Positions 300-19,727 of a DNA stretch of 64,000 nucleotides are shown here, piece by piece; the first letter of the stretch is position 1; every line of letters begins with the position of its first letter. Where the stretch lies: the IMG/VR virus record IMGVR_UViG_3300028173_000007, positions 1 to 64,000 of that record; one strand, given 5' to 3'. The position numbers and the translations under genes were made by a program. Below the pieces are notes generated by a model. It had not been told where the DNA came from, did not search any database, and saw only the letters and a list, made by a program, of their open reading frames with translations. The stretch comes from a virus.

Positions 300-302
300 C
301 AC

Positions 303-317
303 GCGGGCTGAGCCCGC
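303..317. other. Short perfect inverted repeat between genes
   Basis: GCGGGCT and AGCCCGC form perfect 7-base arms around a single G, just after the stop of the first gene and before the Shine-Dalgarno of the next. There is no T-tract, so it is at best a weak terminator or mRNA-stabilising hairpin. Confidence 0.3.
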
Positions 318-330
318 TGGGGAGATGATG

Positions 331-864
331 ATGAGGTCCTTTCTGGTCGGGCTGCTGCTGGTGCTCTGCTTGCCGCTCGGCGGCGCGACGATGTGCGACA
401 CCGACTCCGACGTGCCGATGCCGTGCGCGCAGGCTGACGGTGGCGTGTGCGCCTCGCCGTGGTACATCAATCGCGCGTTCGGGGTGATTCGCAACGGCGA
501 CGCCAAGCCCATCCTCGCGCTGAACGTCTACTGGCAGAACGAGCCCGCAGGAGCGGCGCTGACGGTCAACGGGGTCGTGCTCCAGTGCCAGTTCACGCCG
601 GGGTCGCGGTCGTTCCCATGCTCGGGTGGGACGTGGACGGTCACCGTCGAGGCGGCTGACGAGATCGTGGTCAAGTTCCACCCCTACAGCGGGACACCCG
701 GCAACGGGACCGCGATCTACTACAAATTCAGCGGCGACTCGTCCATTCCGGCCGGGCTCAAGCAGCCGAGCCAAATCGGGACCCTCGGTGAGTACGACTG
801 GCGCGACCAGCGCACGGGCACAGGCCGCGACCATCACGCCGACGTCTACTGGCGTGCGCGGTGA
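331..864 (+). CDS. Putative exported small protein with signal peptide
   Basis: Three ATGs in a row occur at 325, 328 and 331. I prefer 331 because the GGGGAG at 319-324 then sits 6 bases upstream. The N-terminus (MRSFLVGLLLVLCLPLGG) is a typical signal peptide: a positive residue, a hydrophobic core and small residues at the end. The mature part of about 155 residues contains several Cys residues (MCD, PCAQ, VCAS, LQCQF, FPCSG) that could form disulfides, so it is probably exported to the periplasm or cell surface. It is beta-rich in appearance and matches no family I know. It is followed by a GTGA-coupled micro-ORF. Secretion is inferred from the leader only. Confidence 0.6.
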   Translation: MRSFLVGLLLVLCLPLGGATMCDTDSDVPMPCAQADGGVCASPWYINRAFGVIRNGDAKPILALNVYWQNEPAGAALTVNGVVLQCQFTPGSRSFPCSGGTWTVTVEAADEIVVKFHPYSGTPGNGTAIYYKFSGDSSIPAGLKQPSQIGTLGEYDWRDQRTGTGRDHHADVYWRAR

Positions 865-962
865 GCACGAGCATCAGCCTCGGCGACATCGAGAGGCTGC
901 CGCGCTGTCGGCCTGACCCGATGGGCAGCGGCGACCTGTTCGACCCGGCAGACCCGGCATGA
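861..962 (+). CDS. 33-residue translationally coupled micro-ORF
   Basis: GTG at 861 overlaps the upstream TGA (862-864) as GTGA, and its own TGA (960-962) overlaps the next ATG (959) as ATGA. It therefore fills the space exactly between two genes. The product begins MSTSISLGDIERLPRCRPDP and ends in an acidic tail. The same overlap style is used by most genes in this window, which is the main reason to believe it is translated. No motif or function is recognised. Confidence 0.5.
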   Translation: MSTSISLGDIERLPRCRPDPMGSGDLFDPADPA

Positions 963-3900
963 CGGCCCGTGACCTGCTCCGCTCGGCCCGCGAGGCCCTC
1001 TCCGCGGCCGAGTGGCTCCCCGTGCCCGCCCGTGTCGGTGCGGCCCTCTGGCGGCGCCAGTCGGCGACGCTGGCCAAGGGCGCCGGGCACAAGTACGTCC
1101 GCCGCGAGCGGAACCCGAACCCCCCGCCCAAATGGCGCTACTACTACCGGGCGGCCAGCGCGGCCCGCGGCCTCCGCGCCGAGCTCTACGCGGGCGAGAA
1201 GTTCCAGATCGACCACGACGGCCAGGCGGGGCACTTCGAGGTGGTGGAGCTCAGCGGCGACCGGGTGACGGTGCGGCACGACGAGTCCGGCGAGCTCGTC
1301 ACGGTGACGCGGGCGGCCCTCGAAGCCATGTTCCGAGACCACCACGCGGAGGCCATCGACGCGCACCGCGGCCGGCTCTCGCGGGACCTCACCGCGGCGA
1401 AGAAGCACGGCGCCAGTCGGCGCCAGGTGGCCCGGCTCGAAGATGAGGCCCGCCGCCACGGCCACGAAGACCTCGTGAAGCCGAAGCAACGGACCCGAAG
1501 CCCCGAGGGCATCCCGCGCACCGAGGCGCCGGATCTCCTGCTCGTCGGGTGCGTCAAGACGAAGGCGGCGCACGACGAACGGGTGCCCGTGCGCGACCTG
1601 TACCGCTCCCGCACATGGAACCGCCGGCGGGACTACGCCGAAGCCCGCGAGCTCGTCGAGGGCCCCCCCTGGGCGGTCGTGTCGGCCGGCCTGGGCGTGG
1701 TGGACCCTGACCGGCAAACGAAGCGGTACGACGCCCAGGTGAAAGACCTCAAGGGGCCAGCGCGGGCGAAGTGGCTCAAGCGCGTGCGCGGCGCCTTGAT
1801 CGGGAAGCTCTACCGAGGGGAACGGCCCGACACGCCCCGGCGCATCGAGATCATCGCCGGCGCCGACTATGTGAAGGCCGTTCGGGAGGCCCTCGAAGGG
1901 CTCCCCGTCGAGGTGGTGCAGCCCCTCGAAGGCGTGGGGCTCACGCACCAAGAACAGTGGCTCCAGGCCCAGGCCCAGGAGCTCAAGGCGCAACATGAGA
2001 CGTTGGCAGAGCAGGCCAACCGGGAGTCGCCAGGCCGGCCCGAGTGGCACGGCCGCCTATCGCACCTGGGCCTATCGTGGGCCGATTGGGAGGTGCGCCA
2101 CGACTCCGCGGCCGACGCCGTGCGGCGCATCCTGCACCTGCGCCAGAGCTCCGACGGCTGGCACTTCGAGGCGGCCGCCGCGAAGGCCCTCGGTGAGACG
2201 CTCACCGACTACGCCGGCTATCCGGTCGAAATGGAGGACGAAGACGGCGAGTCGTGGCTTGAGGTCGAGCCCGAAGAACTCCCGTCGTGGTTCGGCCGGC
2301 CCGACTGGACGCCCGAGTTTGCCGCGAAGGTCTACCGGCGCGTGGTCGAGCACATCGACGACTGGACGCCCGACGAGGACGACCACCCCGACGGCGTGCC
2401 CGAGTGGGCCGAGGGCTTTCTTCACGAGGTCATGGCCGACGAGCTCGAAACGCCGCCCGACGGCCTGCGCTTGTCGATGGTGTCGAAGGACGAAGCCCGC
2501 CGGTTCATCACGAAGCATCATTCCGCCATGCCGAAGTGGAACCATCGCGGGGTGGTTTTCACCCTGGGCGTGCGTGACCCGCGGGGGCGGCTCGTCGCCG
2601 TAGCCACCGCGAACACCCCGACGGCGCGCGCCTGGCGAGACCACCCGCGCGAACTCGACACGGGGCGCATCCTGCCCGGCCACAACGTGTTGGAGCTCAC
2701 CCGCGTTGCCAGCGACGGCAGCGCGAAGGGCGCCGCGTCCATGCTGGCCCGGCGCGTGGTCGCCCTCGGTGAGAAGGCGAAGCGCGGCGACCCGACCGCC
2801 CCCCACCTCGTGATCACCTATCAACTGGCCAGCGAGAACGGCACCACCTACCGGGCCCTCCGCGACGTGGGCCTGCGCCCCGTCGAGCTCACGAAGGGGC
2901 GCAAGGGCGCCCGCAGGGCCGGCGGCCAGGTCGACGAGAACGACGCGGCGAAGCTCCCGAAACTGCGGTGGGAGGCCGGCCCGGCGGCCATGCCGGCCCG
3001 CTGGGACCTGCTCAACGCCATGAACGCGCGGCGTGAGCACCCCGAGCAACTGGCGACCCTGTTTGCGGCCGAGCGGGCAAACGTCGCCCTCGACGACTAC
3101 TTCGCCAGCGGCTCGAACCACGAAGGCGAGATCCGAGGCTTCCACCGCCTCGGGATCAACCCCGGCGTTGCCGCCGACCGGCTCAATGACCGCAACGTCC
3201 ACGAGCTCAAGCAACTTGCGGGGACCGGCCGCAAGGTCTTCGTGGACTCTGGCGCCTTCGGTGAAATCGACTTCAATGTCCCGAAGAAGGGGCAGAAGGG
3301 CCCGCCGCGGCCGGACCTGCCCATCGGGGCGCCGTTCGTGGTGAAGCCGATCACAGACGACGAGTGGCAAAAGCGGCTGGGCCGCTATCACGAGCTCGCC
3401 CAGGTCCTCGGCGGGCAAATGTACGCCGTCGCGCCCGACAAGGTGGCGCACCAGTCGGAGACCCTCGAACGGCTGGCCAGGTACGCGCCCCAGGTGCGCG
3501 AGATCGCCAAGCTCGGCGCGCACGTCATGGTGCCGATGCAGAAGGGCCAACTAGCCATGCCGGACTTCGCCCAGGTGGCCGCGAAGCGCCTCGGGATGAA
3601 GCCGGACGCCCTCATCTGGGCAATCCCCATGAAAAAGGACGCGACCACCCTCGACGAGCTCGAAGACTTTGTGCGCGAGGCGAAGCCCGGCCGCGTTCAC
3701 CTGCTCGGGGTGGGGCCCGACTCGAAGGCCTACCCGGCGATCCGCGCCATGTTCGACCGGGTGGCCCCCGGCACGGCGCTCACCCTCGACAGCGTGAAGA
3801 TCACCGCGGCCGTGGGTCGCGACGGCACCACGCCGGACGGCAAGCCCAAGGCCCGCGCGCTCACCGCCGCGCAAGACAGGGTGCGGGAGGCTATCGAGGC

Positions 3901-4339
3901 CTCCGCGTTCCGCGCAGACGACCCCGAGCTCCCCGACTACACCGACCACGCCGCCGAGCCGAGCGAGTGGACGACGGAGGCCAGCCGCCGGCGGCTGTGG
4001 GCTACCTGGCGCGGGCGGGACGTGGCCCGGCTCACGAAGACGATCCGAGACCTGCGCGCCGAGCACGGCGCCAGAAAGCCCGTGCCCGAGCCGCTGGCCC
4101 GAGCGAGGGCCGAGCTCAAGACCCTACGCGCCGACGCGAAGCTGTGGCGAGACGACCCCGACGAGTGGATGCAGGCCCCGATCCCCGGCGCAGACCACCT
4201 GAGCAACTACGAGGACCCGTCCGTCGCGACTGACCTTGAGGACACCTGGCGCGACTGGTTCGTAGGCGCCGGCTCGGTGGCCGTCCGAAAGGAGCGCGCC
4301 ATCGTAGAGGCGTTTGGCGAAGTGGGCCGGAAACGGTAG
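959..4339 (+). CDS. Polyvalent protein: KGAGHKY module, DUF6884-like, GNAT-like and TGT/DpdA-like domains
   Basis: 1126 residues. Residues about 40-175 are the shared module (KGAGHKY at 40-46, WRYYY, GHFEV, RHDESG, KKHG). Residues about 192-325 resemble DUF6884 (LLLVGCVKTK, RDLYRSRTW, VVSAGLGVVDPD). About 505-670 resemble an XF1762/GNAT-type acetyltransferase (EARRFITKHH, VLELTRVASDG, LVITYQLASENG). About 707-960 resemble the tRNA-guanine transglycosylase/DpdA superfamily (VFVDSGAF, APDKVAHQSETLERL, VPMQKGQ, LLGVGPDS, DSVKI). DpdA enzymes put 7-deazaguanines into DNA, and the fusion hints at nucleic-acid base modification. ATG at 959 overlaps the preceding micro-ORF. Roles are inferred from motifs; the shared module suggests virion association. 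Confidence 0.75.
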   Translation: MTARDLLRSAREALSAAEWLPVPARVGAALWRRQSATLAKGAGHKYVRRERNPNPPPKWRYYYRAASAARGLRAELYAGEKFQIDHDGQAGHFEVVELSGDRVTVRHDESGELVTVTRAALEAMFRDHHAEAIDAHRGRLSRDLTAAKKHGASRRQVARLEDEARRHGHEDLVKPKQRTRSPEGIPRTEAPDLLLVGCVKTKAAHDERVPVRDLYRSRTWNRRRDYAEARELVEGPPWAVVSAGLGVVDPDRQTKRYDAQVKDLKGPARAKWLKRVRGALIGKLYRGERPDTPRRIEIIAGADYVKAVREALEGLPVEVVQPLEGVGLTHQEQWLQAQAQELKAQHETLAEQANRESPGRPEWHGRLSHLGLSWADWEVRHDSAADAVRRILHLRQSSDGWHFEAAAAKALGETLTDYAGYPVEMEDEDGESWLEVEPEELPSWFGRPDWTPEFAAKVYRRVVEHIDDWTPDEDDHPDGVPEWAEGFLHEVMADELETPPDGLRLSMVSKDEARRFITKHHSAMPKWNHRGVVFTLGVRDPRGRLVAVATANTPTARAWRDHPRELDTGRILPGHNVLELTRVASDGSAKGAASMLARRVVALGEKAKRGDPTAPHLVITYQLASENGTTYRALRDVGLRPVELTKGRKGARRAGGQVDENDAAKLPKLRWEAGPAAMPARWDLLNAMNARREHPEQLATLFAAERANVALDDYFASGSNHEGEIRGFHRLGINPGVAADRLNDRNVHELKQLAGTGRKVFVDSGAFGEIDFNVPKKGQKGPPRPDLPIGAPFVVKPITDDEWQKRLGRYHELAQVLGGQMYAVAPDKVAHQSETLERLARYAPQVREIAKLGAHVMVPMQKGQLAMPDFAQVAAKRLGMKPDALIWAIPMKKDATTLDELEDFVREAKPGRVHLLGVGPDSKAYPAIRAMFDRVAPGTALTLDSVKITAAVGRDGTTPDGKPKARALTAAQDRVREAIEASAFRADDPELPDYTDHAAEPSEWTTEASRRRLWATWRGRDVARLTKTIRDLRAEHGARKPVPEPLARARAELKTLRADAKLWRDDPDEWMQAPIPGADHLSNYEDPSVATDLEDTWRDWFVGAGSVAVRKERAIVEAFGEVGRKR

Positions 4340-4442: not shown

Positions 4443-5354
4443 ATGCGGCCGCTACCCCTCGACCATCCCGTGCGTGTGACCGAGGACGCGACGCCCGACG
4501 CCCGCGGCATCTTTCCAGGCCTCGGCGACGGCGGCCCGCCTCCCGTTCCGTTGTCGACCGTCCTCTCCCCGCTACGGGGAAGCGACCGGGCCGGCGCGAG
4601 GGCCGCCCTTGAGGCCCCGACGCGCGAAACCCTGGCCGACCTCCGCGGCGCCTACCGAGACGCCGGCCTGGCCGGGCCCAAGCTCGCCGCGGCCATGCAA
4701 TCGGCCGCGCGCTACATCGCCCACATGCGCCGGCGCAACCCACGGGGGCGCACCGAGCCCGATCACCTGCGGAAAGCGGCCTACTACGCCGGCGCGGAGG
4801 CCCTCGCGGCCAAGGTGGCGCGGGAGGTGGAGATCCCCGGCTTCATCGGCCGAGTCGTGTGGATGGCCCAGGCGCGCGACCTCCGCAAAGGGGCCGGCCA
4901 CAAGTACCTTCGCCGCGTGAAGGGGGCGAACGGGAAATGGCGGTACTTCTACAAGGTGAGCGGCGGCCGCGGCCTCGGGCACGCTGACGAGTTCCACGTC
5001 GGCGCGAAGTTCGCCGGCGGCGGCGGTCACTTCGAGATCGTGAGCGAGTCCGGCGACATCGTGGAGATCCGCCACGACGAGACGGGGGGGACGCGCAGGC
5101 TGGACAAGGCGGCCCTCTCCGAGCTCCTGCGAAAGCACCACGTCGAAATCGACACCGAGGGTTTCAGCTACTACGTTGGGCGCCTCGGGCCAGCCGACGC
5201 CTATCCAGGCACGGCCGGCGCCGCCGCGGCGGCGCGCTTCCACGGGCTCGACTATCACGAGCATGGAGCGCCCGACGTGCATCCACGACGGCGCGGCCGC
5301 GGGCAGGTGGCCGCGGCTGACGGACTACTGGCCAAGGCCAAGGGGGCAGCATGA
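4443..5354 (+). CDS. Module-only KGAGHKY protein without effector domain
   Basis: 303 residues. ATG at 4443 has GGAGG 4 bases upstream. Residues about 60-135 are helical and Ala/Arg-rich. Residues about 149-240 are the shared module (KGAGHKYLRRVKGANGKWR, GHFEIV, RHDETGG). The tail of about 60 residues is low-complexity with no recognised catalytic motif. Across RVKGANGKWRYFY the nucleotide sequence is almost identical to the next gene (4917-4952 against 5501-5536), which points to recent duplication of the module. The stop overlaps the next ATG (ATGA at 5351). It may be a structural or adaptor version of the module, or the remnant of a larger polyvalent gene. Function unknown. Confidence 0.7.
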   Translation: MRPLPLDHPVRVTEDATPDARGIFPGLGDGGPPPVPLSTVLSPLRGSDRAGARAALEAPTRETLADLRGAYRDAGLAGPKLAAAMQSAARYIAHMRRRNPRGRTEPDHLRKAAYYAGAEALAAKVAREVEIPGFIGRVVWMAQARDLRKGAGHKYLRRVKGANGKWRYFYKVSGGRGLGHADEFHVGAKFAGGGGHFEIVSESGDIVEIRHDETGGTRRLDKAALSELLRKHHVEIDTEGFSYYVGRLGPADAYPGTAGAAAAARFHGLDYHEHGAPDVHPRRRGRGQVAAADGLLAKAKGAA

Positions 5355-8300
5355 GCACGGACCTGATCACGCGAGCCGCGGCCCTCCTGGGGCGCGTGCG
5401 CGGCCACCTCGACGAGATCCCCGAGGCCGCCGGCGTGCTCCTGTGGGCCCGCCAGTCGGGCGAGCTCGTGAAGGGCGCCGGCCACAAGTACGTCCGGCGG
5501 GTGAAGGGCGCGAACGGGAAATGGCGGTACTTCTACGACGTGACGGGGGGCCACGGTGCCGCGCACCACGCAGAGATCCACCTCGGCGCGAAGTTCAAGG
5601 TTGAGCACGAGGGCAAGGCCGGCCACTACGAGGTGACGAAGGAAGACGGCGGGTGGGTGACCATCCGGCACGACGAGACGGGACACGAGGCCAAGGTCAA
5701 GAAGACCACCGTTCAAACCATGATCAAGCGCCAGCACGCGGAGCTATTCGCGGCGCACCGCGAGCGCACCGCGCGAGACGTGAAGGCGGCGAAGAAGTAC
5801 GGCGCCAGCGCGAAGCAGAAAGCCCGCCTGGCGGCGCACGCGAAGAAGTACGGGCACCACGACCTCGCCAACGAACTCACCGACACGGCCGCGCCCGATC
5901 ACGCCGGCGAATACGGGCGTCACGCGGAGCGAGCTCGCCACCACCACGACGAGGCCAGCAAGGCCACGCCCGGCACCCCCGAGCACAAGAAGCACCGCGC
6001 GGCCAGCCTGGCCCACGAGAAGGCGCGCGAGGCGCATAGCCGAGCCATCGGTGACACCGAGGCCTCCGCGGGCGCCTTCGAGGCCTCGAAGGCCGCGGAC
6101 GCACTCACAGTCGAGCACCCCGAAGTCCACGCGGCCCGCCGAGCCCTCGAAGCACACGAGCGGAAACGTCAACAGGTCTCCGACCGCATGTACCGGCGAA
6201 CGAAGGCGGGCAGCGTCTCCACCGGCGCCCGTGCCGCCTACGACCTCAAGATGGGGCAGCTAGTCGAGCAGGAAGGCCACCTCCGCGCGGCCCTCGCCGC
6301 GGCCGAGGACAAGGCCAAGCGCGGGCCCGACGGCGAGCTCACCACCGACGAGCTCGCCCAGCGCCGCGCCGCGGCCGAGGCCTCGGCGCTCAAGCGCCGG
6401 GGGACCGGGAAGCCCGACGAGCCCGACAACGTGGTGCAGTTCCCGAAGCCCGAGCCGAAGCCCGAGCCCGAGTCGACCCGACCCGACCCGGCCCTACTCG
6501 CCCCGCTGGCCGACAAACTCGTCTCGCAACTGCTCCCCGGCATGAAGGGGCACGCGAAGCGCGCCGAGCTCCTGGCCATCGCCGCCGAGCACCTGGCGAA
6601 CATGGTCGGGCAAGAGCCCTCCGAGGAAACGGCGCAGGCCCTCGCGGCCGCCCTCACGACGAAGGCGCGCGAGCTCTCCGCGTCCAACGTGGTGCGCCTG
6701 GGCGGCCTGGGCGGCCGGAAGACGAAGCAGGAGAAGGCCGAAGCCTGGATGCGAGACGCGGCGGCGAAGCAGCGCGCAGGCCTGCGAGACGGCAAGCCGG
6801 GGCACCGCATCCACTACACCGGCGACCGGGCCAACAGCCCGCGCAACGGCGAGGTGATCGCCGCGTTCCCCGGTCACTACCGGGTGAAGTGGGACGACGG
6901 CACCGAAGGCAACGTCGAGCGGATCGGGGTGCGGGGCTGGGATAACGCCGGCGCCCGCTTCCATTGGGAGGACGAGAACCCGAGCGGCGACAGGAGCCCC
7001 GAGGCTATCGAGGAAGGCAAGCGGCAAGCGGTGGCCCACCGGGAGGCCGCCGACAAGGTGGCAGCGGCAGAGAAGGCCGAGCAGGACCGGAAGCACGCGG
7101 GGTGGCACAAGCCCGCCGACCGCACCGAGGCGTCCAAGCGGCTCAAGGCCGCGTTGCAGAAGCTCTACCCCGACGGCCAGTGGAGCGTGACCGGGGGGAA
7201 GGGGACCGGCTACGGGTGGCTCAGCATCAACGGCACCTCTGAGGCCGAGGGGAAGCTGCGCGACGAGCACCGCATTATCACGAGTGTTTCCAGCGGCAGT
7301 CGTGATTCCACCGTGCGGGACCTCGAAGAAGCGTCGGGGATCTTCACCCCCGGCGAGGGCCTCGCGCCGGGCAGCGTGGCCAGGAAGCACGCCGACAAGG
7401 CCGCAGCCGAGGCCGCAAGGCGCGAGGGCGCCGGCACCACGCGCCACGTCGGCCAGGTGGTCACCATCGGATCCAACCGCCGGCGCTACGTCGTGGTGAG
7501 CTCCGAGCAGGTGGGGTCCAGCCCGCCCCGCTACAACTTGTCCGCCCTCTCGGGCGGGATGCGGGGCTCGGGGCCGTCCTCGGTGTCCGCCGACGACCTC
7601 ATCCCCCACGCCGACCAGCGGATCACCTTCGACGGGGCCCAGGCGGCCGACCGCCGGGCCCGCGCGCTCCGCTCGCTGGCGCTCAACAGCAACGCCGACC
7701 CCGACACAAAGCAGCGGGTCCGGCTGGCGGCGAGCTCGGGGGGCGCGGTCCTCTCCCCGGCCGAGCTCGCCCAGCGCAAGGCCGCCGCCGACGCCGCGGC
7801 CCTCAAGCGCACGAAGGCGCCCGAGGTCCCCCCGGTGAAGCCCCCGGTGAAGCCCCCGGTGAAGCCCCCGGTGAAGCCCCCGCAAAGCGACTCGGGCCGG
7901 TCGGACGCTGACAAGCCCTCTCCCCAACCGGCGGCCCAGCGTCCGGCCGGCTTTTCTGCCCCCGTCGCTTTCACCGGCGAGACCCGCGAGAGCGTGACGA
8001 AGAAGCGCGGAAACACCGTCTGGAGCGTGCCCCACGCGGGGAGCATCCCCGACGCGCAGTTCACGGCCATGAAGGACGCCGCGCGGGAGCAGAAGGGCTA
8101 TTACCTGCGCGGCCAGGGCTTCACGTTCCGCGACCCCGAACACGCCCGGCAATTCGTCGCGGCCTGGGGCGCCGGTGACGGTGCGGTCCCGACGACGACG
8201 CCCGACGCGGACGGGAAGCGCCGCGCCAGGGCAGATCGGGCGAAGAAGCGAACGAAACCCGACGGCTTCGACGCGGCCGAGGGCGCCGGCGAGGGCTGGC

Positions 8301-10903
8301 GCCGCAAGCGGGACGCCCTGACCGGAACCGAGGGCAAGGTCGCCCGCGTGGTGATCACGCAGAACCCCAACGGCACGCACTCGGCCACCGTCCACGGCCG
8401 CAAGCTGGAGGGCGAGCATCGGTTCCCCTACGACGCCGGCAAGGCCGCCGCGGCCGAGCTCGGGCGCCTACAGGCGATCCGCAACGCCGACCGCAACCGG
8501 GAGATCGCCAGGCGCCAGGCCTCGAAGTTGGGGCTGGTGAGGGCCGAAGCCCCCCCGGCTCCCCCTGCGACGATCCAGCCGACCCGCGACGAGACCGAGC
8601 CGGCCATGACGGCCCGGCACGCGGCCGAGATCCAAGCCATCGAGGACGGCGAGCTCAAGCCCAGCGAGAAGTTTGACGCGCGGCGAGACGCCAAGGTCCG
8701 GCACGAGGTCGAGGCCTTCGAGGCCGGCCACCGCTGGCAGGACCCCGCGAAGGTGCGGGAGACCCACGCGAAAGCCACGCGCCGCGGCTTCAACACCTGG
8801 GGCGGCCGGCGCCAGGCGGGGTGGAAGCATCATGGAATGGAGACCGAGCGCGCGGCCCTCCCGAAGATCATGGAGCGCCACCGCGCACACGAGAAGGCCC
8901 AGCGCGCCCACCAGCGCGCCACCGGGTCGGCGGCCTCCCGGCTGACGGCGCTCTATAACCACCTGACCAACGGCGGCGCATGGCGCGACAGCGCGCCCGA
9001 GGTGGGCGAAGTCGTGAAGCACCGCAACGACACCAACGAGGTCAAGACGGTGGGCTCTCGCAACGCCCGAGTCGGGGGCCGCCTGCGCGGCCACCGCGAA
9101 CTCGGGATGCCCCACGCCGAAGGCCTCGCCGCGGTGATCTCGTCGGCGACCGACGACGACCTGTCCGAGCTCTCGGCCGGGCACGCCCAGCACGGGGGGC
9201 TACAGTCGCAGGGCTCCCCCGGCCTCTCGCCCTACGGTTTCGGCATGGAGGCCGCCAGCGCCGAGGTGGAGCGCCGGCAGAAGGCGGGCACCTGGGCGCC
9301 TTCGAGCGAGGCCCCAGCGCCGCGCACCGTGGCCGCCCTCAACACGGCCCGAGAGGCGATCAAGGCCGCGCGCAAGGCGCGAAACGACGCCAGCGACCGT
9401 CGGACGGAAGGCCGGCAGAAGCTCGCCGGCGAACACCTGGCGAAGATCGGCGCGACGCGAGCCCCGGCCCCGAAGCGGACCAGTCGGCCGAAGGCCGCCG
9501 CGGAGGCCTACGCGGCGGACTACGGGCGGGACGCCCGCATCGACCACCACGCCGAGCGGGTGTCGGTGGTACGAACGACCGGCTGGGATGGAAAGACGCC
9601 CTCGTGGCACGTCGTCGAGCACCACCACGACGGGACGCACACGCGGCACGCGGACAGCGCCATTGACCGCAAGCGGGACGCCCTCGCCTACGCCGAGGAC
9701 GTGCGGAAGACCCGCAAGGCCGCCGGGGCCCCGACGGACGCCCACCTGGCCATCGCGGCCGACCTCGACCACCTCGCCCGGCACGTCGACAACGCCCAAT
9801 ATGAGGTGCCCGAGCACCTGCACGGGGCCCTTGACGCGCGCGACTTCAAAGAGCGCGGAGTGGCGCACTCCGACGCATGGCGCGAGGCGCACCCGCGCGG
9901 CACGAACCCCCTCGGGCTGGAGCGGCACAACGACGCGACCTACATGCGCGAGCTCGCACACAAGCTCCGCTCGGGCATGAGCGGCAATACGCAGGTGATC
10001 GGCGGCGAGATCCACGGCGGGCCAGGCGTCCTCGCACGCCACGAGGGCGGCTATGCGAAGGCCCGAGCGAAGGCCGTCGCGGACAACGCAGATCGGCCGG
10101 AACAGCACCGCGCGGGGAACTACGGCCACGTCGTCGGGCACAACAGGTCGGCCCGTGTGGCCGACCGCGCCCAGGTCATGCACGACGCCGAAAAGCACCT
10201 GGGCAAGTGGCGGGCGATCATGCACGACCCGACGACCCCGGCCGGCGATCTGCACGAGCCCGAGCAGGGCACCGCGAACCACGCGATGCGGGTGGCGAAC
10301 AGCGACGCGCACCGGAAGGCCTACCGCAACGGCTACACCTTCGAGCGCGGCGGCCTCCCGGCCGAAGGCGTCGAGCGGGACTATCACGAGGCCCTCACCG
10401 GGATGGACAACTACGCGCGAAAGCGCGCCGTCGAGGCCATGAAGTCAACCGGCGTTCGCCCCGTGCCTCACGGGCACTTCCACACCGCGCAATCGAAAGC
10501 GCCCGGCGTGCCGCTGGCGAAGGCCTACCCGCCCGCGCTCATGCGACCCTTGGCGCGCGCTGACCGCCTCCTGGCGCTCGCCAAGGGCGATACGGGGTGG
10601 CGCACCATGCCGAACGTCGTTCGGATCAAGTTCGGGGCTGGCGGGAAGATTGAGGCGGGCCCGTCGCACATGATCGGCCGGCGCTTGCAAGACGTGAAGC
10701 GCGGCGCCAAGGCGGCCGTGGACACGTCGAGGATGGCGTCTGGGTATCATGTGACCGTCAACGAGGCCGGCGTGCGCGCGAGTGGCTTCCAGCCAGAGAA
10801 GCACGCGGAGACGGGATACGGGGGGTATGGGTCTTTCACGACCGGGACGCAGCCGACCAGTCGGGGGCGTTGCATGGCGCGCAACGGATGGCCCGATACA
10901 TGA
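5351..10903 (+). CDS. Giant polyvalent protein (1850 aa), ART-like C-terminus continued by frameshift
   Basis: Residues 41-175 hold the shared module. Next come a His/Ala-rich coiled coil, linker repeats of the type KRGPDGELTTDELAQRR (about residue 322 and again about 797), a stretch resembling large-polyvalent-protein-associated domains (about 600-650, WSVTGGKGTGYGWLSING), a Pro-rich spacer and a second small LPD-like segment (GYYLRGQGFTFRDPEHARQF). The long C-terminal region is unrecognised until YHVTVNEAGVRASGF near residue 1800, which resembles the start of an ADP-ribosyltransferase fold. In this frame the domain stops abruptly at 10903. A -1 shift in the six Gs at 10820-10825 gives GYGGVWVFHDRDAADQ and continues to 11508. 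The effector is probably an ART made by frameshift, or one broken by an indel. Confidence 0.75.
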   Translation: MSTDLITRAAALLGRVRGHLDEIPEAAGVLLWARQSGELVKGAGHKYVRRVKGANGKWRYFYDVTGGHGAAHHAEIHLGAKFKVEHEGKAGHYEVTKEDGGWVTIRHDETGHEAKVKKTTVQTMIKRQHAELFAAHRERTARDVKAAKKYGASAKQKARLAAHAKKYGHHDLANELTDTAAPDHAGEYGRHAERARHHHDEASKATPGTPEHKKHRAASLAHEKAREAHSRAIGDTEASAGAFEASKAADALTVEHPEVHAARRALEAHERKRQQVSDRMYRRTKAGSVSTGARAAYDLKMGQLVEQEGHLRAALAAAEDKAKRGPDGELTTDELAQRRAAAEASALKRRGTGKPDEPDNVVQFPKPEPKPEPESTRPDPALLAPLADKLVSQLLPGMKGHAKRAELLAIAAEHLANMVGQEPSEETAQALAAALTTKARELSASNVVRLGGLGGRKTKQEKAEAWMRDAAAKQRAGLRDGKPGHRIHYTGDRANSPRNGEVIAAFPGHYRVKWDDGTEGNVERIGVRGWDNAGARFHWEDENPSGDRSPEAIEEGKRQAVAHREAADKVAAAEKAEQDRKHAGWHKPADRTEASKRLKAALQKLYPDGQWSVTGGKGTGYGWLSINGTSEAEGKLRDEHRIITSVSSGSRDSTVRDLEEASGIFTPGEGLAPGSVARKHADKAAAEAARREGAGTTRHVGQVVTIGSNRRRYVVVSSEQVGSSPPRYNLSALSGGMRGSGPSSVSADDLIPHADQRITFDGAQAADRRARALRSLALNSNADPDTKQRVRLAASSGGAVLSPAELAQRKAAADAAALKRTKAPEVPPVKPPVKPPVKPPVKPPQSDSGRSDADKPSPQPAAQRPAGFSAPVAFTGETRESVTKKRGNTVWSVPHAGSIPDAQFTAMKDAAREQKGYYLRGQGFTFRDPEHARQFVAAWGAGDGAVPTTTPDADGKRRARADRAKKRTKPDGFDAAEGAGEGWRRKRDALTGTEGKVARVVITQNPNGTHSATVHGRKLEGEHRFPYDAGKAAAAELGRLQAIRNADRNREIARRQASKLGLVRAEAPPAPPATIQPTRDETEPAMTARHAAEIQAIEDGELKPSEKFDARRDAKVRHEVEAFEAGHRWQDPAKVRETHAKATRRGFNTWGGRRQAGWKHHGMETERAALPKIMERHRAHEKAQRAHQRATGSAASRLTALYNHLTNGGAWRDSAPEVGEVVKHRNDTNEVKTVGSRNARVGGRLRGHRELGMPHAEGLAAVISSATDDDLSELSAGHAQHGGLQSQGSPGLSPYGFGMEAASAEVERRQKAGTWAPSSEAPAPRTVAALNTAREAIKAARKARNDASDRRTEGRQKLAGEHLAKIGATRAPAPKRTSRPKAAAEAYAADYGRDARIDHHAERVSVVRTTGWDGKTPSWHVVEHHHDGTHTRHADSAIDRKRDALAYAEDVRKTRKAAGAPTDAHLAIAADLDHLARHVDNAQYEVPEHLHGALDARDFKERGVAHSDAWREAHPRGTNPLGLERHNDATYMRELAHKLRSGMSGNTQVIGGEIHGGPGVLARHEGGYAKARAKAVADNADRPEQHRAGNYGHVVGHNRSARVADRAQVMHDAEKHLGKWRAIMHDPTTPAGDLHEPEQGTANHAMRVANSDAHRKAYRNGYTFERGGLPAEGVERDYHEALTGMDNYARKRAVEAMKSTGVRPVPHGHFHTAQSKAPGVPLAKAYPPALMRPLARADRLLALAKGDTGWRTMPNVVRIKFGAGGKIEAGPSHMIGRRLQDVKRGAKAAVDTSRMASGYHVTVNEAGVRASGFQPEKHAETGYGGYGSFTTGTQPTSRGRCMARNGWPDT
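7829..7876 (+). repeat. 12-bp tandem repeat encoding PPVK spacer
   Basis: Four perfect copies of CCCCCGGTGAAG encode a (PPVK)n hinge inside the 1850-residue polyvalent protein. It follows one of the ELAQRK-type linkers and precedes a low-complexity Ser/Asp/Pro segment, so it acts as a rigid interdomain spacer. Confidence 0.85.
10820..10825 (+). other. G6 homopolymer, candidate -1 frameshift site
   Basis: In the frame of the 1850-residue protein the codons are TAC GGG GGG TAT. Slipping back one base lets the tRNA on GGG (10823-10825) re-pair perfectly and continues with GTA TGG GTC TTT, reading GGVWVF and then an open frame to 11508. It is either a programmed -1 site or a sequencing/assembly indel in a homopolymer. 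Confidence 0.5.
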
Positions 10904-12018: not shown

Positions 12019-12450
12019 GTGTGGGTGCTGGTGCTGGTGCTACTCCTGCCCGACGCAGGGCTCCCCGACGCGGGCCCCGTTGCCGTTGACGCGGCCGCCC
12101 CCGATGCGGGAACCCCCGACGCGGCGATCCCGATGCTCACCCCCGAGGCCGCGGCCAGGCTGGCCGCCATCGAGGCCCGCGAGCGGGTCCACGTCGAGTG
12201 GCTGCGCGCTGTGAGGACGCCCCGCGTCGGCCCCGTCCCGAAGCGGGTCGAGCGGACGCGCCGCCGGCGCGCGCACCGCATCGGCCGCGCGGAGGCCCGC
12301 CGACGAGCTCTCGCGGTCGCGCGTCGCGCCCGAGCTCGTGCGGAGGCGCGCGCCCTGCTATTCGAGGCGGCGGCGCAGGTGGAGCAGGCGCAGTATGAGG
12401 TGCAGGCCCTCGCCCCAGAGCAGGAGCAGGAGCAGGAGCAGGCCCCGTGA
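12019..12450 (+). CDS. Short-leader protein with PDAG repeats and basic helical C-terminus
   Basis: 143 residues from GTG 12019. The N-terminus MWVLVLVLLLPDAG is a short hydrophobic leader. It is followed by LPDAG/VDAA/APDAGTPDAA repeats, a composition common in Myxococcota exported proteins. The rest is a very basic helical region (ERTRRRRAHRIGRAEARRR) ending in a Glu/Gln run. The stop overlaps the next GTG as GTGA. It may be the partner of the preceding membrane coiled-coil protein. No family is recognised, and the host hint is only compositional. Confidence 0.5.
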   Translation: MWVLVLVLLLPDAGLPDAGPVAVDAAAPDAGTPDAAIPMLTPEAAARLAAIEARERVHVEWLRAVRTPRVGPVPKRVERTRRRRAHRIGRAEARRRALAVARRARARAEARALLFEAAAQVEQAQYEVQALAPEQEQEQEQAP

Positions 12451-14954
12451 GCCAGTTGCCCTTGGTTTTTGAGCGCGCGGCCAGAGCGCGCGCCTCGCGG
12501 GCCGTCGAGGTCCCCGAATGGATGGGTCGCATCCTGTGGGTGAGGTCGCGCGGTGAGCTCATGAAGGGCGCCGGGCACAAGTATATCCGGCGCGTCGCGG
12601 CGAAGAACCCGCCCCCGAAATGGCGCTACTACTACAGCGCCGGCGGCGGTGCAGGCCTGGGGCACGCCGACGAGATCACCACCGGCGCCGCCTTCAAGCT
12701 CTCGCACGGTGGCCAGGCGGGGCACTTCCACGTCACGGCAGAACTCGACGGCGACCTCGTGCGCGTCCGCCACGACGAGACGGGGCACGAGGTCGAGATC
12801 ACGCGGGCGGCCCTCGCGGCCATGCTGCACCGCGAGCACGCCGCCCTTGTGAGCGGACACGCCGCGAAGGTCAAAGAGGATCTCGAAGCGGTGAAGAAGC
12901 ACGGGACCGCGGCCCAGCGCGCCCGTGTCGAGTCCCGTGCCCGGCGCTACCAGCACACGCGGCACCTGGCAGAAGACGCAGGGGTGGGCGTCCGCCCCTA
13001 CGTCTCGCCGCGCGAGCGTGAGCTCACCCCAGCCGAGGCCGAGGTGCGCCGCGTGGCCTACGCGATCAAGCGCGCCCACGAGACCCCCGAGGACACGAGG
13101 ACCGCCGCGCGCGCGATGGCCCAGGCCGTGCCCGCCCTGGCCCAACTTGTGCCGATCCCGTCCTCGAAGGGCGACACGCGCGCGAACGCCGCCCTCTGCG
13201 AGCAGATCGCCGGCATGGTTCACGGCGCCTCGGTGGCCGACGTGCTGCACCGGCTGGCCCCGACCGAGCCCTCACACCAGCGGCGCAAACGTGGCTTGGC
13301 CGGGCACACCGCCGACGCGCACCGCTTCGAGGTCACCGGCGAGCTCGACGCGGCCCGGCCCGTGATCTTCGTCGACAACGTGACGACGAGCGGCGCCACC
13401 TTCGAGGCCGCCGGGCGCGACGTTGGCCGCGGTACAGGGGTGGCCTACGCGAAGGCCACGAGCGACAACCCCGCCGCACCTGCACCGACCGCCTGGCGAA
13501 GCGGCGCCGATGGGCACGGCGGGGCCGGGCTCCGCATCCTGAGCCTGTTTTCTGGCGCAGGTGGCTTCGATATGGGGCTCCACGCGGGGCTACCTCACGC
13601 GCGCACCACCGGCCTATGCGAGATCGACCCCTACGCGCGCAAGGTCCTCGCGCGCGCCTTCCCCGGCGTCGCCCAGCACGAGGACGTGAACACCCTCGCC
13701 AGCGGCGAGGACAAGCCCGCAGAGCGCCCGAACATGATTATCGGGGGCTTCCCATGCCAGGATCTCTCGGCGGCCAACGTGCGCGCCAAGGGGCTCAGCG
13801 GGGAGCGGTCGGGGCTTTACCGCAAGATGCGCGACATCATCGAAGGGCAGGACCCGGATTGGGTCGTCTTCGAGAACGTCCCTTTGCTGCGCTCACGCGG
13901 CCTCGACGTGGTGCTCATGGATATGCAGGCCCTCGGCTATGAGGTGACCTGGGATTCAATCTCTGGCGCGTCGGTGGGAGCTCCACACCAGCGAGATCGG
14001 GTGTTCGTGGTGTGCCACCGCCCAGGCGTCAAGCTCGACTGGCAACGGCCCGACCGTGAGCTCACGGGGCACCACTGGCAGTCGGACCCGCCTCCGCTCC
14101 GCGACAGCGGGACGCACAGGCAGACCCGGATCGCACACACGGTCCTCGCGGGTAACGCGGTGATCCCCCAGGTGGCCGAGCACCTGGGGGAGATCATCGG
14201 CGGGAGCTCGCCAGGCCAGGCCGAGCCCACCGGGAAGGAGATCGCCAGGTGGACCGGCGACGCATGGGTGAGTCCGAAGGGGAAACCCGTGGTGAAGTTC
14301 CCGCGCGCCGGCCTGCTACGCGACGGCGTGGTCTACGAGAACGAACACACGAAGCAGGACGGGGGCGGCATCCGAGAGGGCGACAAGGTGTGGGTCCGCA
14401 ACACCGACTCGGCCGGCGGCGGGGACGTATACGACGCAGAGCAGCGGCTCGCCCTCGACCACCTCACGCGGAACACGACGATCCCCCCGGCGATGCAAAC
14501 CACGGTGGACGAGCTCGTGTCCTGGGGCATCGTCGACAAGACCGACAAGGGGTACACCTTGACGGGCTGGGGTGAGCACGCCGTCGAGAACATGAGCCAG
14601 TGGACCTACGACGGCGAGGGCGGGGTCAATGATGCGTTCCTCGGGCGCGTCCACTACGTCAACGGCGACAGCTACGACGTGGAGCTCCCGAACGGGGATA
14701 TCGAGCCCTTTGACGAAGAATACGTCCGGCTCATGCCGACGGTCGTCAAGAGCGACTGGAAGGGCTACGGCAAGGCGGATTCCGAGAATACGCCGCAGTA
14801 CGACACGGGGCGCGCGGGGCGCGACCGGGGCCGCCAGCTTATGCACTGGGTCGACGGCTACATCAATCCGAAGTTCGCCGAGTGGCACATGGGTTTTCCG
14901 AGGGGTCACTTTGACGTAGGCCAGGCCCCAGACGACTATAAGCCGATCAAGTGA
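12447..14954 (+). CDS. Polyvalent protein: KGAGHKY module, phosphoribosyltransferase-like and C5-cytosine methyltransferase
   Basis: 835 residues. The shared module is at 40-175. Residues about 233-335 look like a ComF-type phosphoribosyltransferase (LVPIPSSKGDT, VIFVDNVTTSGATFEAAG). Residues about 361-585 are a DNA C5-cytosine methyltransferase: ILSLFSGAGGFD (SAM binding), GFPCQDLS (catalytic Cys), FENV and QRDRVFVV, then GNAVIPQVAEHLGEI (motif X). The stretch between QRDR and motif X is only about 55 residues, too short for a normal target-recognition domain. About 240 residues follow motif X and end with NPKFAEWHMGFPRGHFDV, a signature normally found before motif X, so the order looks permuted. 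Likely role: methylation of incoming or host DNA. Virion location is inferred. Confidence 0.8.
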   Translation: MSQLPLVFERAARARASRAVEVPEWMGRILWVRSRGELMKGAGHKYIRRVAAKNPPPKWRYYYSAGGGAGLGHADEITTGAAFKLSHGGQAGHFHVTAELDGDLVRVRHDETGHEVEITRAALAAMLHREHAALVSGHAAKVKEDLEAVKKHGTAAQRARVESRARRYQHTRHLAEDAGVGVRPYVSPRERELTPAEAEVRRVAYAIKRAHETPEDTRTAARAMAQAVPALAQLVPIPSSKGDTRANAALCEQIAGMVHGASVADVLHRLAPTEPSHQRRKRGLAGHTADAHRFEVTGELDAARPVIFVDNVTTSGATFEAAGRDVGRGTGVAYAKATSDNPAAPAPTAWRSGADGHGGAGLRILSLFSGAGGFDMGLHAGLPHARTTGLCEIDPYARKVLARAFPGVAQHEDVNTLASGEDKPAERPNMIIGGFPCQDLSAANVRAKGLSGERSGLYRKMRDIIEGQDPDWVVFENVPLLRSRGLDVVLMDMQALGYEVTWDSISGASVGAPHQRDRVFVVCHRPGVKLDWQRPDRELTGHHWQSDPPPLRDSGTHRQTRIAHTVLAGNAVIPQVAEHLGEIIGGSSPGQAEPTGKEIARWTGDAWVSPKGKPVVKFPRAGLLRDGVVYENEHTKQDGGGIREGDKVWVRNTDSAGGGDVYDAEQRLALDHLTRNTTIPPAMQTTVDELVSWGIVDKTDKGYTLTGWGEHAVENMSQWTYDGEGGVNDAFLGRVHYVNGDSYDVELPNGDIEPFDEEYVRLMPTVVKSDWKGYGKADSENTPQYDTGRAGRDRGRQLMHWVDGYINPKFAEWHMGFPRGHFDVGQAPDDYKPIK

Positions 14955-16921: not shown

Positions 16922-16930
16922 TGGTAGGAT
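16922..16930 (+). promoter_or_regulatory. Putative extended -10 element overlapping a start codon
   Basis: TGGTAGGAT matches the motif at 4416, 22530 and 62695. It overlaps the ATG at 16929. If it is a real -10, transcription would begin near 16936 and translation would use the GTG at 16938, nearly leaderless. No -35 is evident. Confidence 0.35.
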
Positions 16931-19727
16931 GCCGCCCGTGGACACACCGACCCGAGTAGCCCGAGCTCGGGCCCGCGCGCAGCTTGCCCCGGCCCCTTCC
17001 CGTGAGCTCCGCGCCCAGGCCTACCGCGCCTCGCTGGTGAAGGGCGCCGGGCACAAGTACGTCCGGCGCACCCCCAATCCCAACGCCCCCCCGAAATGGC
17101 GGTACGACTACCAGCACCGCAACTTCAACGGGCGCGGCTCGGCCGAGAAGGTCGACGCGGTGTCCCGACGCCATATCACCGAGGGCGCGAAGGTCGCAGA
17201 CGGGAAGGGCGCAGGGCATTGGGAGGTGCGAGAGCTCGAAGGTGGGGGGGTCGAGCTCGTCCACGACGAGACCGGCGAGCGCAAGGCGTTCGACAACGCC
17301 TACAGCGCCGCGCGCCACCTCAACGAAGCGCACGCCCCCCTCACGAGCGAGGCCACGAAGGCCCGCCGCGCGCGCCGGGTGCGCGAGTGCAAGATCGCCG
17401 CTCGCCAGGCGGCCCAGGCGCACCGAGACTTCGAGAAGGCCCCGTCGGTGAAGGGGCTTCGCAAGTGCGCGGCCGGCTGGGCGGCGGCCCTCAACCTCGC
17501 GCGCGCTGGCGCGCTGGATTGGGAGGACCTCTATCGGTGGTTTCCGAGCACCGTCGAGCCGCCCGCCAGCCCCGCGGAACTCGGGCGCGAGCTCGCGGAG
17601 CTCCGCGCGGAGATCGCCCTGTTCGGCAGCGCCCGGCCGTGGTCGGCATCCGAGGTGCTCCAGCACCGGCACCCCGACCGGATCAAGAAGGCCGTTCGGT
17701 TCCGCTACCTCTACCGCCTGGCCGACGGCCTGGGCGGGGCGTGGCAACAGGACACGCAAGCGGAGGACCGGCACAACAGGTGGCCGCCCGCGTGGAACGG
17801 GAAGTACCTCCGCGGCACCTGGGATGGGGTGCCATCGCTTGCGCGAAGTGTCACGAAGCCGCCGACCGCTCGGAAGGTCGCCGCCGCGCTCCGCGGCAGC
17901 AACGCCGCAAAGGACATCGGCCGCAACACTTGGATCGTCGTCGGCGCCAACTTCGAGAAGCTCCCCGACGACGCCACGGATCACGAGCGGGAGGTGGCCC
18001 GGCTGGCCCGCGAGCTCATGGCCCAGCACAAGGGCTACATCGCCGGGGTGGACGTGTCGGAGTCCCTGCCGACGGGTGAGTATGAGCTCGGCGCCGCCGC
18101 CCGAGCGTTGCACATCGACTCGACGGTCCCCGTCGAGAAGATGCGGCCCGAGGCGCTGGCGCCGCCGGCGCCTGTGACGCTCGCCGCCTTGTTCGAGACG
18201 GCCCAGGAGAAGCGGCGAACGCTCGGGGTGGACGATACGCCGCTTGAATGGCCCCCCGGCGCAGACCCTCAGATGGCAGTCGGGGAGCTCATCGGGGCCC
18301 GAGGCATGGTCACCATGCCGACGAGCATGGCTATCGCGGCCCTCAACGCAGGTCGCGCCCAGGCCGCCGAGCAGGTGCGCGCGAAGCACGCGCAGTCCTG
18401 GGCGCCGGTCCAGGCGAAGATCGCCGCCGCGCTCGCCGCGGTGGGCGAGCTCCCCGGCACGAAGGCCGATCACCTGACAGACGCGCTCATCGAGCAGACG
18501 GGGCTATCACGGGCCGAGGTGGCCACGGCCGCGGCCTACGCCAAGGCCGAAACGCGAGTAGTCGCGGGGCGGGTCGGCCGGCTCGAAGGTGAAGCGTCGG
18601 AGGTCTACTCGAAGCTCTATCACGGCGAAATGAAGGAGGCCGGGGCCGCCGTCGAAGAAGCCTTGACTGAGGATCACGAGTGGATGCTCAAACAGGATCC
18701 CGTCGCGACGTTATGGATGGTGGCGCCCATGCTCAAGACGGACAACGGCGGCCCTCTGTCCAAGGCCCTCGGGCCTGAGATCGCCCAGCGGGCGACAGCG
18801 GCCTACGACGCCGGCCTGGCGGCGCGCGACCGGGAGGTGAAGGCTCGCAAGGCCTCGCGCGAGGCCCGTGTAGGGCCCAGCGAGGCCCGCAAGGTGTGGG
18901 CCGAGTGGTTCCCCGGCGAGAAGATGCCGAAGCCCGAGGCCTGGCGGCTCGACGGGGCCCAGGCCGACGCCTTGGGTCTCGACGCCGCGGCGATGCGCGA
19001 GGTGAGGCGCCGCGTGCGCGAGAAGGCATCGAGTGAGGACCTCGCGCATATCCGCGAAGCCCTCGGGATCAAGGGCGACCCGGCGGCCGGCCTGGCCAGC
19101 CTCGACACGGGCACACCGGAGCAGGTGCGCGCCTCGTGGCGCACGGGCGCTGGGGTCAAGAAGACCCCCGAAGAATTCCGCGCCGAGCCACTAGACCGAT
19201 TCCAGAGCTACGACACGCAGACGGACCCTGGGAGGTTGGCGCACCTGTTCGCCAACGTGGCGCAGTCGGTCGTCCCCCGGAACGTGCGGATCGACTTGTA
19301 CCGGGGTGAATTCCGAGCGCACGCCGGGCACGAGGGCATCATCCGGCAGGACATGGGCCCGGCTGGAGCCGTGAACGCAAGAACGCTGTGGCACGAGTAC
19401 GGACATCAAATCGAGTTCGGAAACAAGGCCATCGGTGCGGCAACTAAGGCCATGCTCCGCGAGCGATGCGCTGGCGAATCAGCGACCCACCTCGGCGCCG
19501 GGTATGAGGCCTACGAGGTGGCCTACGAGGACGAGTTCGCGAGCCGGTACACCGCGAAGCACTACGACCACGTTGGAACCTCAGAGGTGTTGAGCATGGG
19601 CATTGACGCCTACCTTCACGACCCGGCCGAGCTCCAACGGGACGATCCCATGCTCTTTGGCTTCGTGCTGGCCGTCGTCTCGGGAGCGTTCGGCCCCGCC
19701 ACGGGTCACTTCAAGGCCAGGTCGTGA
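16929..19727 (+). CDS. Polyvalent protein: KGAGHKY module and HExxH metallopeptidase
   Basis: 932 residues from ATG 16929; GTG 16938 is an alternative start (neither has a good ribosome-binding site). The shared module begins with KGAGHKY at 38-44 and is slightly diverged (GHWEV, VHDETGE). The middle (about 140-700) is mostly helical and unrecognised. The C-terminus has a zinc-peptidase motif HEYGH at 822-826 (TLWHEYGHQIEF). About 45 residues later it reads YEDEFASRYTAKHY, followed by SEVLSMGIDAYLHDP, in the arrangement seen in metallopeptidase domains attached to phage head-morphogenesis and polyvalent proteins. Likely cleaves host or virion proteins; whether it acts in maturation or after injection is unknown. 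The stop overlaps the next gene (GTGA at 19724). Confidence 0.75.
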   Translation: MPPVDTPTRVARARARAQLAPAPSRELRAQAYRASLVKGAGHKYVRRTPNPNAPPKWRYDYQHRNFNGRGSAEKVDAVSRRHITEGAKVADGKGAGHWEVRELEGGGVELVHDETGERKAFDNAYSAARHLNEAHAPLTSEATKARRARRVRECKIAARQAAQAHRDFEKAPSVKGLRKCAAGWAAALNLARAGALDWEDLYRWFPSTVEPPASPAELGRELAELRAEIALFGSARPWSASEVLQHRHPDRIKKAVRFRYLYRLADGLGGAWQQDTQAEDRHNRWPPAWNGKYLRGTWDGVPSLARSVTKPPTARKVAAALRGSNAAKDIGRNTWIVVGANFEKLPDDATDHEREVARLARELMAQHKGYIAGVDVSESLPTGEYELGAAARALHIDSTVPVEKMRPEALAPPAPVTLAALFETAQEKRRTLGVDDTPLEWPPGADPQMAVGELIGARGMVTMPTSMAIAALNAGRAQAAEQVRAKHAQSWAPVQAKIAAALAAVGELPGTKADHLTDALIEQTGLSRAEVATAAAYAKAETRVVAGRVGRLEGEASEVYSKLYHGEMKEAGAAVEEALTEDHEWMLKQDPVATLWMVAPMLKTDNGGPLSKALGPEIAQRATAAYDAGLAARDREVKARKASREARVGPSEARKVWAEWFPGEKMPKPEAWRLDGAQADALGLDAAAMREVRRRVREKASSEDLAHIREALGIKGDPAAGLASLDTGTPEQVRASWRTGAGVKKTPEEFRAEPLDRFQSYDTQTDPGRLAHLFANVAQSVVPRNVRIDLYRGEFRAHAGHEGIIRQDMGPAGAVNARTLWHEYGHQIEFGNKAIGAATKAMLRERCAGESATHLGAGYEAYEVAYEDEFASRYTAKHYDHVGTSEVLSMGIDAYLHDPAELQRDDPMLFGFVLAVVSGAFGPATGHFKARS

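What the first reader, a model, noticed from the sequence alone, without database searches (positions are those of the whole stretch)
1532..3850. DUF6884-like, GNAT-like and TGT/DpdA-like domains in one protein
DpdA-family enzymes exchange guanine in DNA for 7-deazaguanines, and phages use this against restriction. Fusion with a GNAT-like and a DUF6884-like domain in a probable virion protein is unexpected, because DNA modification by DpdA normally occurs during replication. No preQ0 biosynthesis genes are visible in the window.
Basis: partly seen in the sequence, partly recalled or inferred. Interest (0 to 1): 0.7.

Follow-up and report, generated by a model that had tools for sequence, protein, structure and literature searches.

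The report
Phage multi-domain protein with DNA-modification enzymes
An uncultured, high-GC phage encodes, between its DNA-packaging and portal genes, one long protein that joins three predicted DNA-base-modifying enzymes; this would be a so far undescribed way for phages to ship a base-swapping (DpdA-like) enzyme inside the large 'polyvalent' proteins thought to enter the host with their DNA.

Summary
One ORF (959-4339, 1126 aa) carries DUF6884 (aa 194-336, E 1.5e-23), a Mom-like GNAT (aa ~502-672) and a TGT/DpdA-like (beta-alpha)8 barrel (aa ~703-999). The barrel has no curated-model hit of its own. It is supported by profile comparison with phage DpdA (E 7e-9; score 68 against at most 18 in 100 shuffles), an AlphaFold model with eight strands, and structure matches to viral DpdA/TGT proteins. 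D763, D827, H914 and D944 are invariant in 26 sequences. No FolE, QueD or QueC is in the 89.6-kb record. The fusion is not a one-off: an independent phage keeps tag + Mom + DpdA (38-45% identity) without DUF6884. DUF6884 is also the domain of bacterial DpdC, so DpdA + DUF6884 is coherent. The barrel recurs in 26 further viral loci, 18 of them inside ORFs over 1,500 aa (some with ART-PolyVal or LPD38), and on plasmids beside LPD1; tblastn with two members found none in 50,697 phage records. Best reading: a polyvalent protein that modifies DNA bases for anti-restriction. Chemistry, substrate and virion location are inferred. The 2017 polyvalent-protein survey text does not mention TGT, DpdA or Mom.

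The parts
959..4339 (+). Gene for the 1126-aa multidomain protein (the finding)
   Evidence: open frame without stops; twin phage L001 99.6% identical over 11.7 kb; divergent homologue in G037
1019..1498 (+). N-terminal shared 'KGAGHKY' tag domain (aa 21-180)
   Evidence: same domain in six genes of the window and in 30 of 40 searched phage records
1538..1966 (+). DUF6884 (PF21818; YaaA/DpdC-like), aa 194-336; motif CxxxK at C198-K202 and SAxxG at aa 242-246
   Evidence: motifs from Pfam paper PMC11701544
2156..2461 (+). Uncharacterised region just before the Mom-like domain (aa ~400-501), kept with it in two other phages
2462..2974 (+). Mom-like GNAT acyltransferase domain (aa 502-672)
   Evidence: phrog_1384 and XF1762_fam; invariant HHS..MP, ELTR.ASDG and TY.L.SE.GTTY motifs in three phages
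3065..3955 (+). TGT/DpdA-like (beta-alpha)8 barrel (aa 703-999)
3245..3247 (+). D763 of the DSGAF motif (counterpart of 9g DpdA D72; first catalytic Asp of TGT/DpdA)
   Evidence: 26 of 26
3437..3439 (+). D827 (APD motif; aligned near D114 of DpdA)
   Evidence: 26 of 26
3539..3541 (+). Q861 (P-x-Q-x-G motif; DpdA has H, TGT has Q)
   Evidence: 21 of 26
3698..3700 (+). H914 (H-x-LG motif; aligned with DpdA H196)
   Evidence: 26 of 26
3788..3790 (+). D944 (counterpart of the DpdA DSS aspartate, second catalytic Asp)
   Evidence: one search aligns it with the DSS of nt-1 DpdA2; 26 of 26
3956..4336 (+). C-terminal helical extension, partly conserved in G037
4443..5354 (+). 303-aa protein made mainly of the tag domain
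5351..10903 (+). 1850-aa tag protein of unknown function
12447..14954 (+). Tag + C5-cytosine DNA methyltransferase (PF00145, E 3.8e-31)
16929..19727 (+). 932-aa tag protein of unknown function
19724..20725 (+). InPase domain of polyvalent proteins (PF18823, E 5e-33); fused to the tag in phage G037
20728..22575 (+). Portal protein (context)
23484..24800 (+). Head maturation protease (context)
24797..31141 (+). 2114-aa tag protein
33253..34758 (+). Major head protein (context)

Best explanation
The gene encodes a phage polyvalent protein whose enzymatic domains modify DNA bases. SHOWN by sequence or structure prediction: an N-terminal domain shared with five other genes of the head module; a DUF6884 (DpdC-type) domain; a Mom-like acyltransferase; and a DpdA/TGT-superfamily barrel with the aspartates and histidine in place. 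INFERRED mechanism: made with the late genes, the protein is packaged with or bound to the phage genome, possibly through the shared domain. The barrel exchanges guanines in the phage DNA for a 7-deazaguanine taken from the host's queuosine pathway (the phage makes none). The DUF6884 domain flips out or further converts that base, as DpdC is needed for dPreQ0 to dADG in bacteria. The Mom-like domain acylates adenine N6. The neighbouring tagged gene methylates cytosine. Together these would hide progeny or incoming DNA from the restriction enzymes of the next host.
For: Domain calls with low E-values; DpdA homology far above shuffles; eight-stranded barrel with D763, D827, Q861, H914 and D944 at or just after strand C-termini; structural matches to an ART-PolyVal protein (E 2e-14), to nt-1 R9TGF0 (464 aa, the length of DpdA2 YP_008125322 in the nt-1 preQ0 cluster) and to several queuine TGTs. 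Mom + DpdA kept together in an independent phage at 38-45% identity, also after TerL, and a lone Mom-like gene next to TerL in a third. Position between TerL and portal, beside an InPase of polyvalent type and a tagged cytosine methyltransferase. The same barrel lies inside 3000-4200-aa ORFs, of which three were scanned: two carry LPD38 (one also ART-PolyVal and zeta toxin) and one helicase domains; and in LPD1 proteins of plasmids. DUF6884 occurs in bacterial DpdC (PMC11888242); polyvalent proteins typically sit near late genes (PMC5512222).
Against: No preQ0 gene in the record, and no QueC over its cut-off in any of 38 records, nearly all bearing the barrel, unlike 9g-type DpdA phages; so the base is unknown and would have to come from the host. 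DUF6884 co-occurs only in this phage and its twin among those records. PDB fold search ranks generic TIM barrels, not TGT. Profile comparison with E. coli TGT aligns only the DSG motif. The protein has a single cysteine (C198), outside the barrel, so no TGT-type zinc site. No proof of virion incorporation; no host sequence was examined.
Confidence: 0.55

Rival explanations
1. The DpdA-like barrel works on RNA rather than DNA: injected, it changes host tRNA (guanine/queuine exchange), altering host translation or blocking tRNA-cleaving defences; the Mom-like and DUF6884 domains act separately.
For: The superfamily's ancestral substrate is tRNA (established knowledge); polyvalent proteins often combine unrelated activities (PMC5512222); no preQ0 genes in this record.
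Against: The closest profile match is to DNA-acting DpdA rather than to E. coli TGT; the barrel lacks the TGT zinc cysteines; it is fused to a Mom-like domain, whose known members modify DNA (PMC7824862), in two divergent phages.
Confidence: 0.15
2. The barrel has left base exchange and is another base or sugar enzyme, for example a DNA glycosylase or nuclease-like barrel attacking modified bases of host or rival DNA.
For: PDB structure matches are to sugar epimerases, KDO-8-phosphate synthases and aldolases; UV-endonuclease-like barrels are among the viral matches; 5 of 26 relatives lack the conserved Gln; no preQ0 supply was found.
Against: All motifs kept are those of DpdA/TGT, in the same order and at the right strands; generic TIM barrels match any TIM barrel.
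Confidence: 0.2
3. The long protein is mainly structural (internal head or scaffold protein) and its enzymatic domains are decaying passengers.
For: The shared N-terminal domain and the head-module position; a tag-only protein lies next door (4443-5354).
Against: Catalytic motifs are intact in all three domains; Mom and DpdA domains are retained at 47-51% identity between two phages, with fewest changes at second codon positions.
Confidence: 0.1

Closest known systems
Polyvalent proteins of phages and conjugative elements (Iyer et al. 2017, PMC5512222)
   Same: Long multidomain protein of disparate enzymes in the late/head gene region; neighbour InPase (PF18823) of the polyvalent type; relatives of the barrel in ORFs with ART-PolyVal, LPD38, zeta toxin or helicase domains, and with LPD1 on plasmids
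   Different: The survey's text does not mention TGT, DpdA or Mom; its supplementary domain list could not be read. The N-terminal tag domain has no Pfam model
Phage DpdA of 9g type and DpdA2 of Vibrio phage nt-1 (Hutinet et al. 2019, PMC6884629)
   Same: DSGAF, second Asp, H-x-(F/L)G and D-S-S motifs; barrel fold; profile match E 7e-9
   Different: Only ~16% identity over the aligned part; Gln instead of His in the (F)H-x-G motif; embedded in a large fusion; no preQ0 genes; tblastn finds neither the window barrel nor that of L014 in 50,697 phage records
Bacterial Dpd islands (DpdA/DpdB/DpdC; dADG in DNA)
   Same: DpdA-type barrel plus the DUF6884 domain that annotates DpdC (PMC11888242); weak PADLOC DpdC match E 0.0037
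   Different: One polypeptide, in a phage; no DpdB or restriction genes noticed nearby; DUF6884 is also in proteins not tied to Dpd (YfjM)
Mom family (phage Mu Mom; XF1762 family)
   Same: GNAT-type Mom-like domain with E 2.4e-6 to PHROG Mom-like and 7e-10 to XF1762
   Different: Below the curated XF1762 cut-off; fused to a DpdA-like domain instead of the nuclease fusions reported in jumbo phages (PMC7824862)

Membership tests
TGT/DpdA superfamily | (beta-alpha)8 barrel fold | tested here: met
   AlphaFold model, 8 strands, 161 residues with pLDDT of at least 90; TIM-barrel matches
TGT/DpdA superfamily | Two catalytic Asp (DSGxF and the late D) | tested here: met
   D763 and D944 in 26 of 26; aligned to DpdA and, weakly, DpdA2
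tRNA-type TGT (PF01702) | Pfam TGT model match | tested here: not met
   no match in the record, all 14 controls positive
tRNA-type TGT (PF01702) | Cys3-His zinc site | tested here: not met
   one Cys in the protein, outside the barrel; no conserved Cys column
Phage DpdA | Profile similarity to 9g-type DpdA, with the conserved His196 | tested here: met
   E 7e-9, H914 aligned with H196; shuffle control
Phage DpdA | Inserts a 7-deazaguanine into DNA | not testable with these tools
   needs nucleoside mass spectrometry
Phage DpdA | Linked preQ0 synthesis genes (common, not required) | tested here: not met
   no QueC, QueD or FolE in the record; QueE not tested
Polyvalent protein | Several disparate domains in one long polypeptide | tested here: met
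Polyvalent protein | Encoded near late/virion genes | tested here: met
   between TerL and portal, also in G037
Polyvalent protein | Carried in the virion and injected | not testable with these tools
   needs virion proteomics
Mom family | Curated model match | tested here: inconclusive
   phrog_1384 E 2.4e-6; XF1762_fam 38.9 bits, cut-off 50
Mom family | Acylates adenine N6 in DNA | not testable with these tools
   needs an assay
DUF6884 (PF21818) | Gathering score, CxxxK and LSAxxG motifs | tested here: met
   83.9 bits against 30; C198-K202 and VSAGLG at aa 241-246 (V in place of the L)
DpdC | Match to DpdC models over their length | tested here: inconclusive
   PADLOC DpdC E 0.0037 over 59 residues only

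The most novel reading that the evidence does not exclude
A previously undescribed polyvalent DpdA-like family, spread over uncultured phages and plasmids, is carried in the virion and performs guanine-to-7-deazaguanine exchange on phage DNA, using host preQ0 and coupled in one chain to DpdC-like and Mom-like domains, so that one protein hypermodifies two bases; a shared tag domain delivers it and other modifiers.
Probability: 0.25. Interest if true: 0.85.

Novelty: new variant of a known kind. Interest (0 to 1): 0.62.

Why it matters
DpdA-type base exchange is known from soluble phage enzymes usually made with their own preQ0 pathway. A DpdA-like barrel that recurs in giant polyvalent proteins, without preQ0 genes, would add an enzymatic class to those proteins, suggest that the host's queuosine pathway feeds phage DNA protection, and raise the testable possibility that DNA is modified at packaging or entry rather than during replication. 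The shared tag domain, present in a cytosine methyltransferase, an InPase fusion and the Mom-DpdA protein, offers a handle to test how such proteins reach the virion.

Tried and rejected
Single-sequence folding of the C-terminal 455 aa failed (pLDDT 40.6). Direct Pfam, PDB and PADLOC searches of the barrel found nothing useful. phrog_887 did not match the window record itself. A PAPS-reductase (QueC-superfamily) partner looked promising because it lies near the barrel in G037 and two plasmids, but it is not clearly enriched in viral records with the barrel (5 of 28, window phage and its twin included) over tag-only phages (3 of 27), so it was dropped. A chimeric-assembly explanation of the fusion was rejected because a divergent phage has the same Mom-DpdA order and a second contig is nearly identical. 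The tag was not found in cultured phages or plasmids.

Full report
OBSERVATION. The reported interval lies in one ORF, window 959-4339 (+), 1126 aa. It carries DUF6884 (aa 194-336, E 1.5e-23), a Mom-like GNAT (phrog_1384 E 2.4e-6; XF1762_fam E 7e-10, below cut-off) and, at aa ~703-999, a barrel that no curated model recognises directly. GC by codon position is 74/49/91%, as for a real gene.

THE BARREL IS A DpdA/TGT RELATIVE. tblastn found homologues on 38 plasmids (best 2e-11), some inside LPD1 proteins of Cupriavidus. An alignment of these (A1) found 27 viral loci: one is the twin phage and 26 are new, of which L025/L026 are twins. Eighteen of the 26 lie in ORFs above 1,500 aa. Three of those were scanned: one has helicase/SNF2-type domains, one LPD38 + ART-PolyVal + zeta toxin, one LPD38. 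Profile comparison of the viral set (A2) with nine phage DpdA proteins (A3) gave probability 95.8 and E 7e-9; 100 column shuffles reached 18.0 at most against 68.0, and the reversed profile 16.0. Nine of the 11 members of A1 match phrog_887, queuine tRNA-ribosyltransferase. The AlphaFold model (pLDDT 78.9, pTM 0.74) has eight strands in order, with D763, D827, Q861, H914 and D944 at or just after strand ends. D763, D827, H914 and D944 are invariant in 26 of 26 and Q861 is Q in 21. Viral structure matches include an ART-PolyVal protein (E 2e-14), several queuine TGTs and R9TGF0 of Vibrio phage nt-1. I identify R9TGF0 as DpdA2 because YP_008125322, named as DpdA2 in PMC6884629, is also 464 aa and lies between GTP cyclohydrolase and QueC-like genes; that identification rests on length and phage, not on a sequence match. 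Profile comparison aligns D944 with the DSS of that DpdA2, weakly (E 0.012). PDB matches are generic TIM barrels, so the fold search alone does not single out TGT.

THE FUSION IS REAL AND RECURRENT. Window proteins 959, 4443, 5351, 12447, 16929 and 24797 share a ~150-aa domain (invariant KGAGHKY). Scanning with it found 36 viral loci. In one of those phages (G037) a 1595-aa ORF has the same order, tag - Mom-like - DpdA-like, at 38-45% identity but without DUF6884. In G037 this gene also lies after TerL (one other tag gene between), and an InPase-tag fusion, portal, protease and another tag protein follow. In G034 a lone Mom-like gene lies beside TerL on the other strand. DUF6884 is therefore an optional part, and Mom + DpdA the conserved core in two phages.

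CONTEXT. PHROG and Pfam place a C5-methyltransferase (12447), InPase (19724), portal (20728), protease (23484), major head protein (33253) and sheath (44240) downstream. A protein that reads as large terminase (my reading of L041 5255-7531, record about 81,754-84,030; 62-63% identical to counterparts in G037 and G034) lies upstream across the record ends, which overlap by 729 bases at 95% identity. No QueC, QueD or FolE is in the record. The tag domain also occurs between a terminase fragment and a portal in a Myxococcales MAG (L094), so a myxobacterial host is a guess, not a result.

MECHANISM. Shown: domain content, kept catalytic motifs, recurrence, location. Inferred: the substrate is DNA; the base comes from the host's preQ0 pathway; DUF6884 acts like DpdC, in which that Pfam domain is found and which is needed for dADG (PMC11888242), though DUF6884 also occurs in the abasic-site/RNA-base lesion interactor YfjM (PMC11701544); Mom acylates adenine (PMC7824862); the protein enters with the DNA. 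Phages with DpdA alone are known, and host supply has been proposed (PMC6884629; PMC7824862).

COMPARISON AND NOVELTY. By architecture and location this is a polyvalent protein (PMC5512222), with virion packaging untested. That survey's main text does not mention TGT, DpdA, Mom or deazaguanine; its supplement was not available, so one of its 40 unnamed LPD domains might be this barrel. The barrel matches no Pfam LPD model. No paper found links DpdA with polyvalent proteins, within an open-access library only. I rate it a new variant of a known kind.

Noticed in passing
window 1019-1498, 4827-5156, 5414-5875, 12504-12962, 16980-17426, 24899-25378: A ~150-aa domain (KGAGHKY...WRY.Y...GHFEV...RHDE.G) shared by six different head-module proteins, present 1-6 times per record in 30 phage records, without a Pfam model and absent from cultured phages and plasmids at the thresholds used.
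   Followed up: partly
window 12447-14954: C5-cytosine methyltransferase with the same N-terminal domain; the Pfam match covers only the first half of the model, so there is probably an insertion.
   Followed up: no
L089 5743-9510 (phage G037): Tag protein upstream of the Mom-DpdA protein carries a PAPS-reductase-like domain (QueC superfamily); similar genes lie near the barrel gene on Alteromonas and Shewanella plasmids (L003, L008). Not clearly enriched overall.
   Followed up: partly
window 115-842 and the end of the record: The record's two ends overlap by about 729 bases at 95% identity, suggesting a circular or redundant genome assembled from mixed strains.
   Followed up: partly
window 5351-10903 against L001: The proline-rich VKPP repeat differs by one unit between the two near-identical phages (1850 against 1846 aa).
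   Followed up: no
L091 4261-5382 (minus), phage G034: A stand-alone Mom-like gene with the same upstream region lies directly after TerL on the opposite strand.
   Followed up: partly
L025, L032-L034, L037: Some polyvalent barrels have His or Pro instead of the conserved Gln of the P-x-Q-x-G motif, so part of the family may differ in base recognition.
   Followed up: no
L094 (Myxococcales MAG CP070713.1): Apparent prophage with TerL fragment - tag protein (1715 aa) - portal, a hint of the host group.
   Followed up: partly
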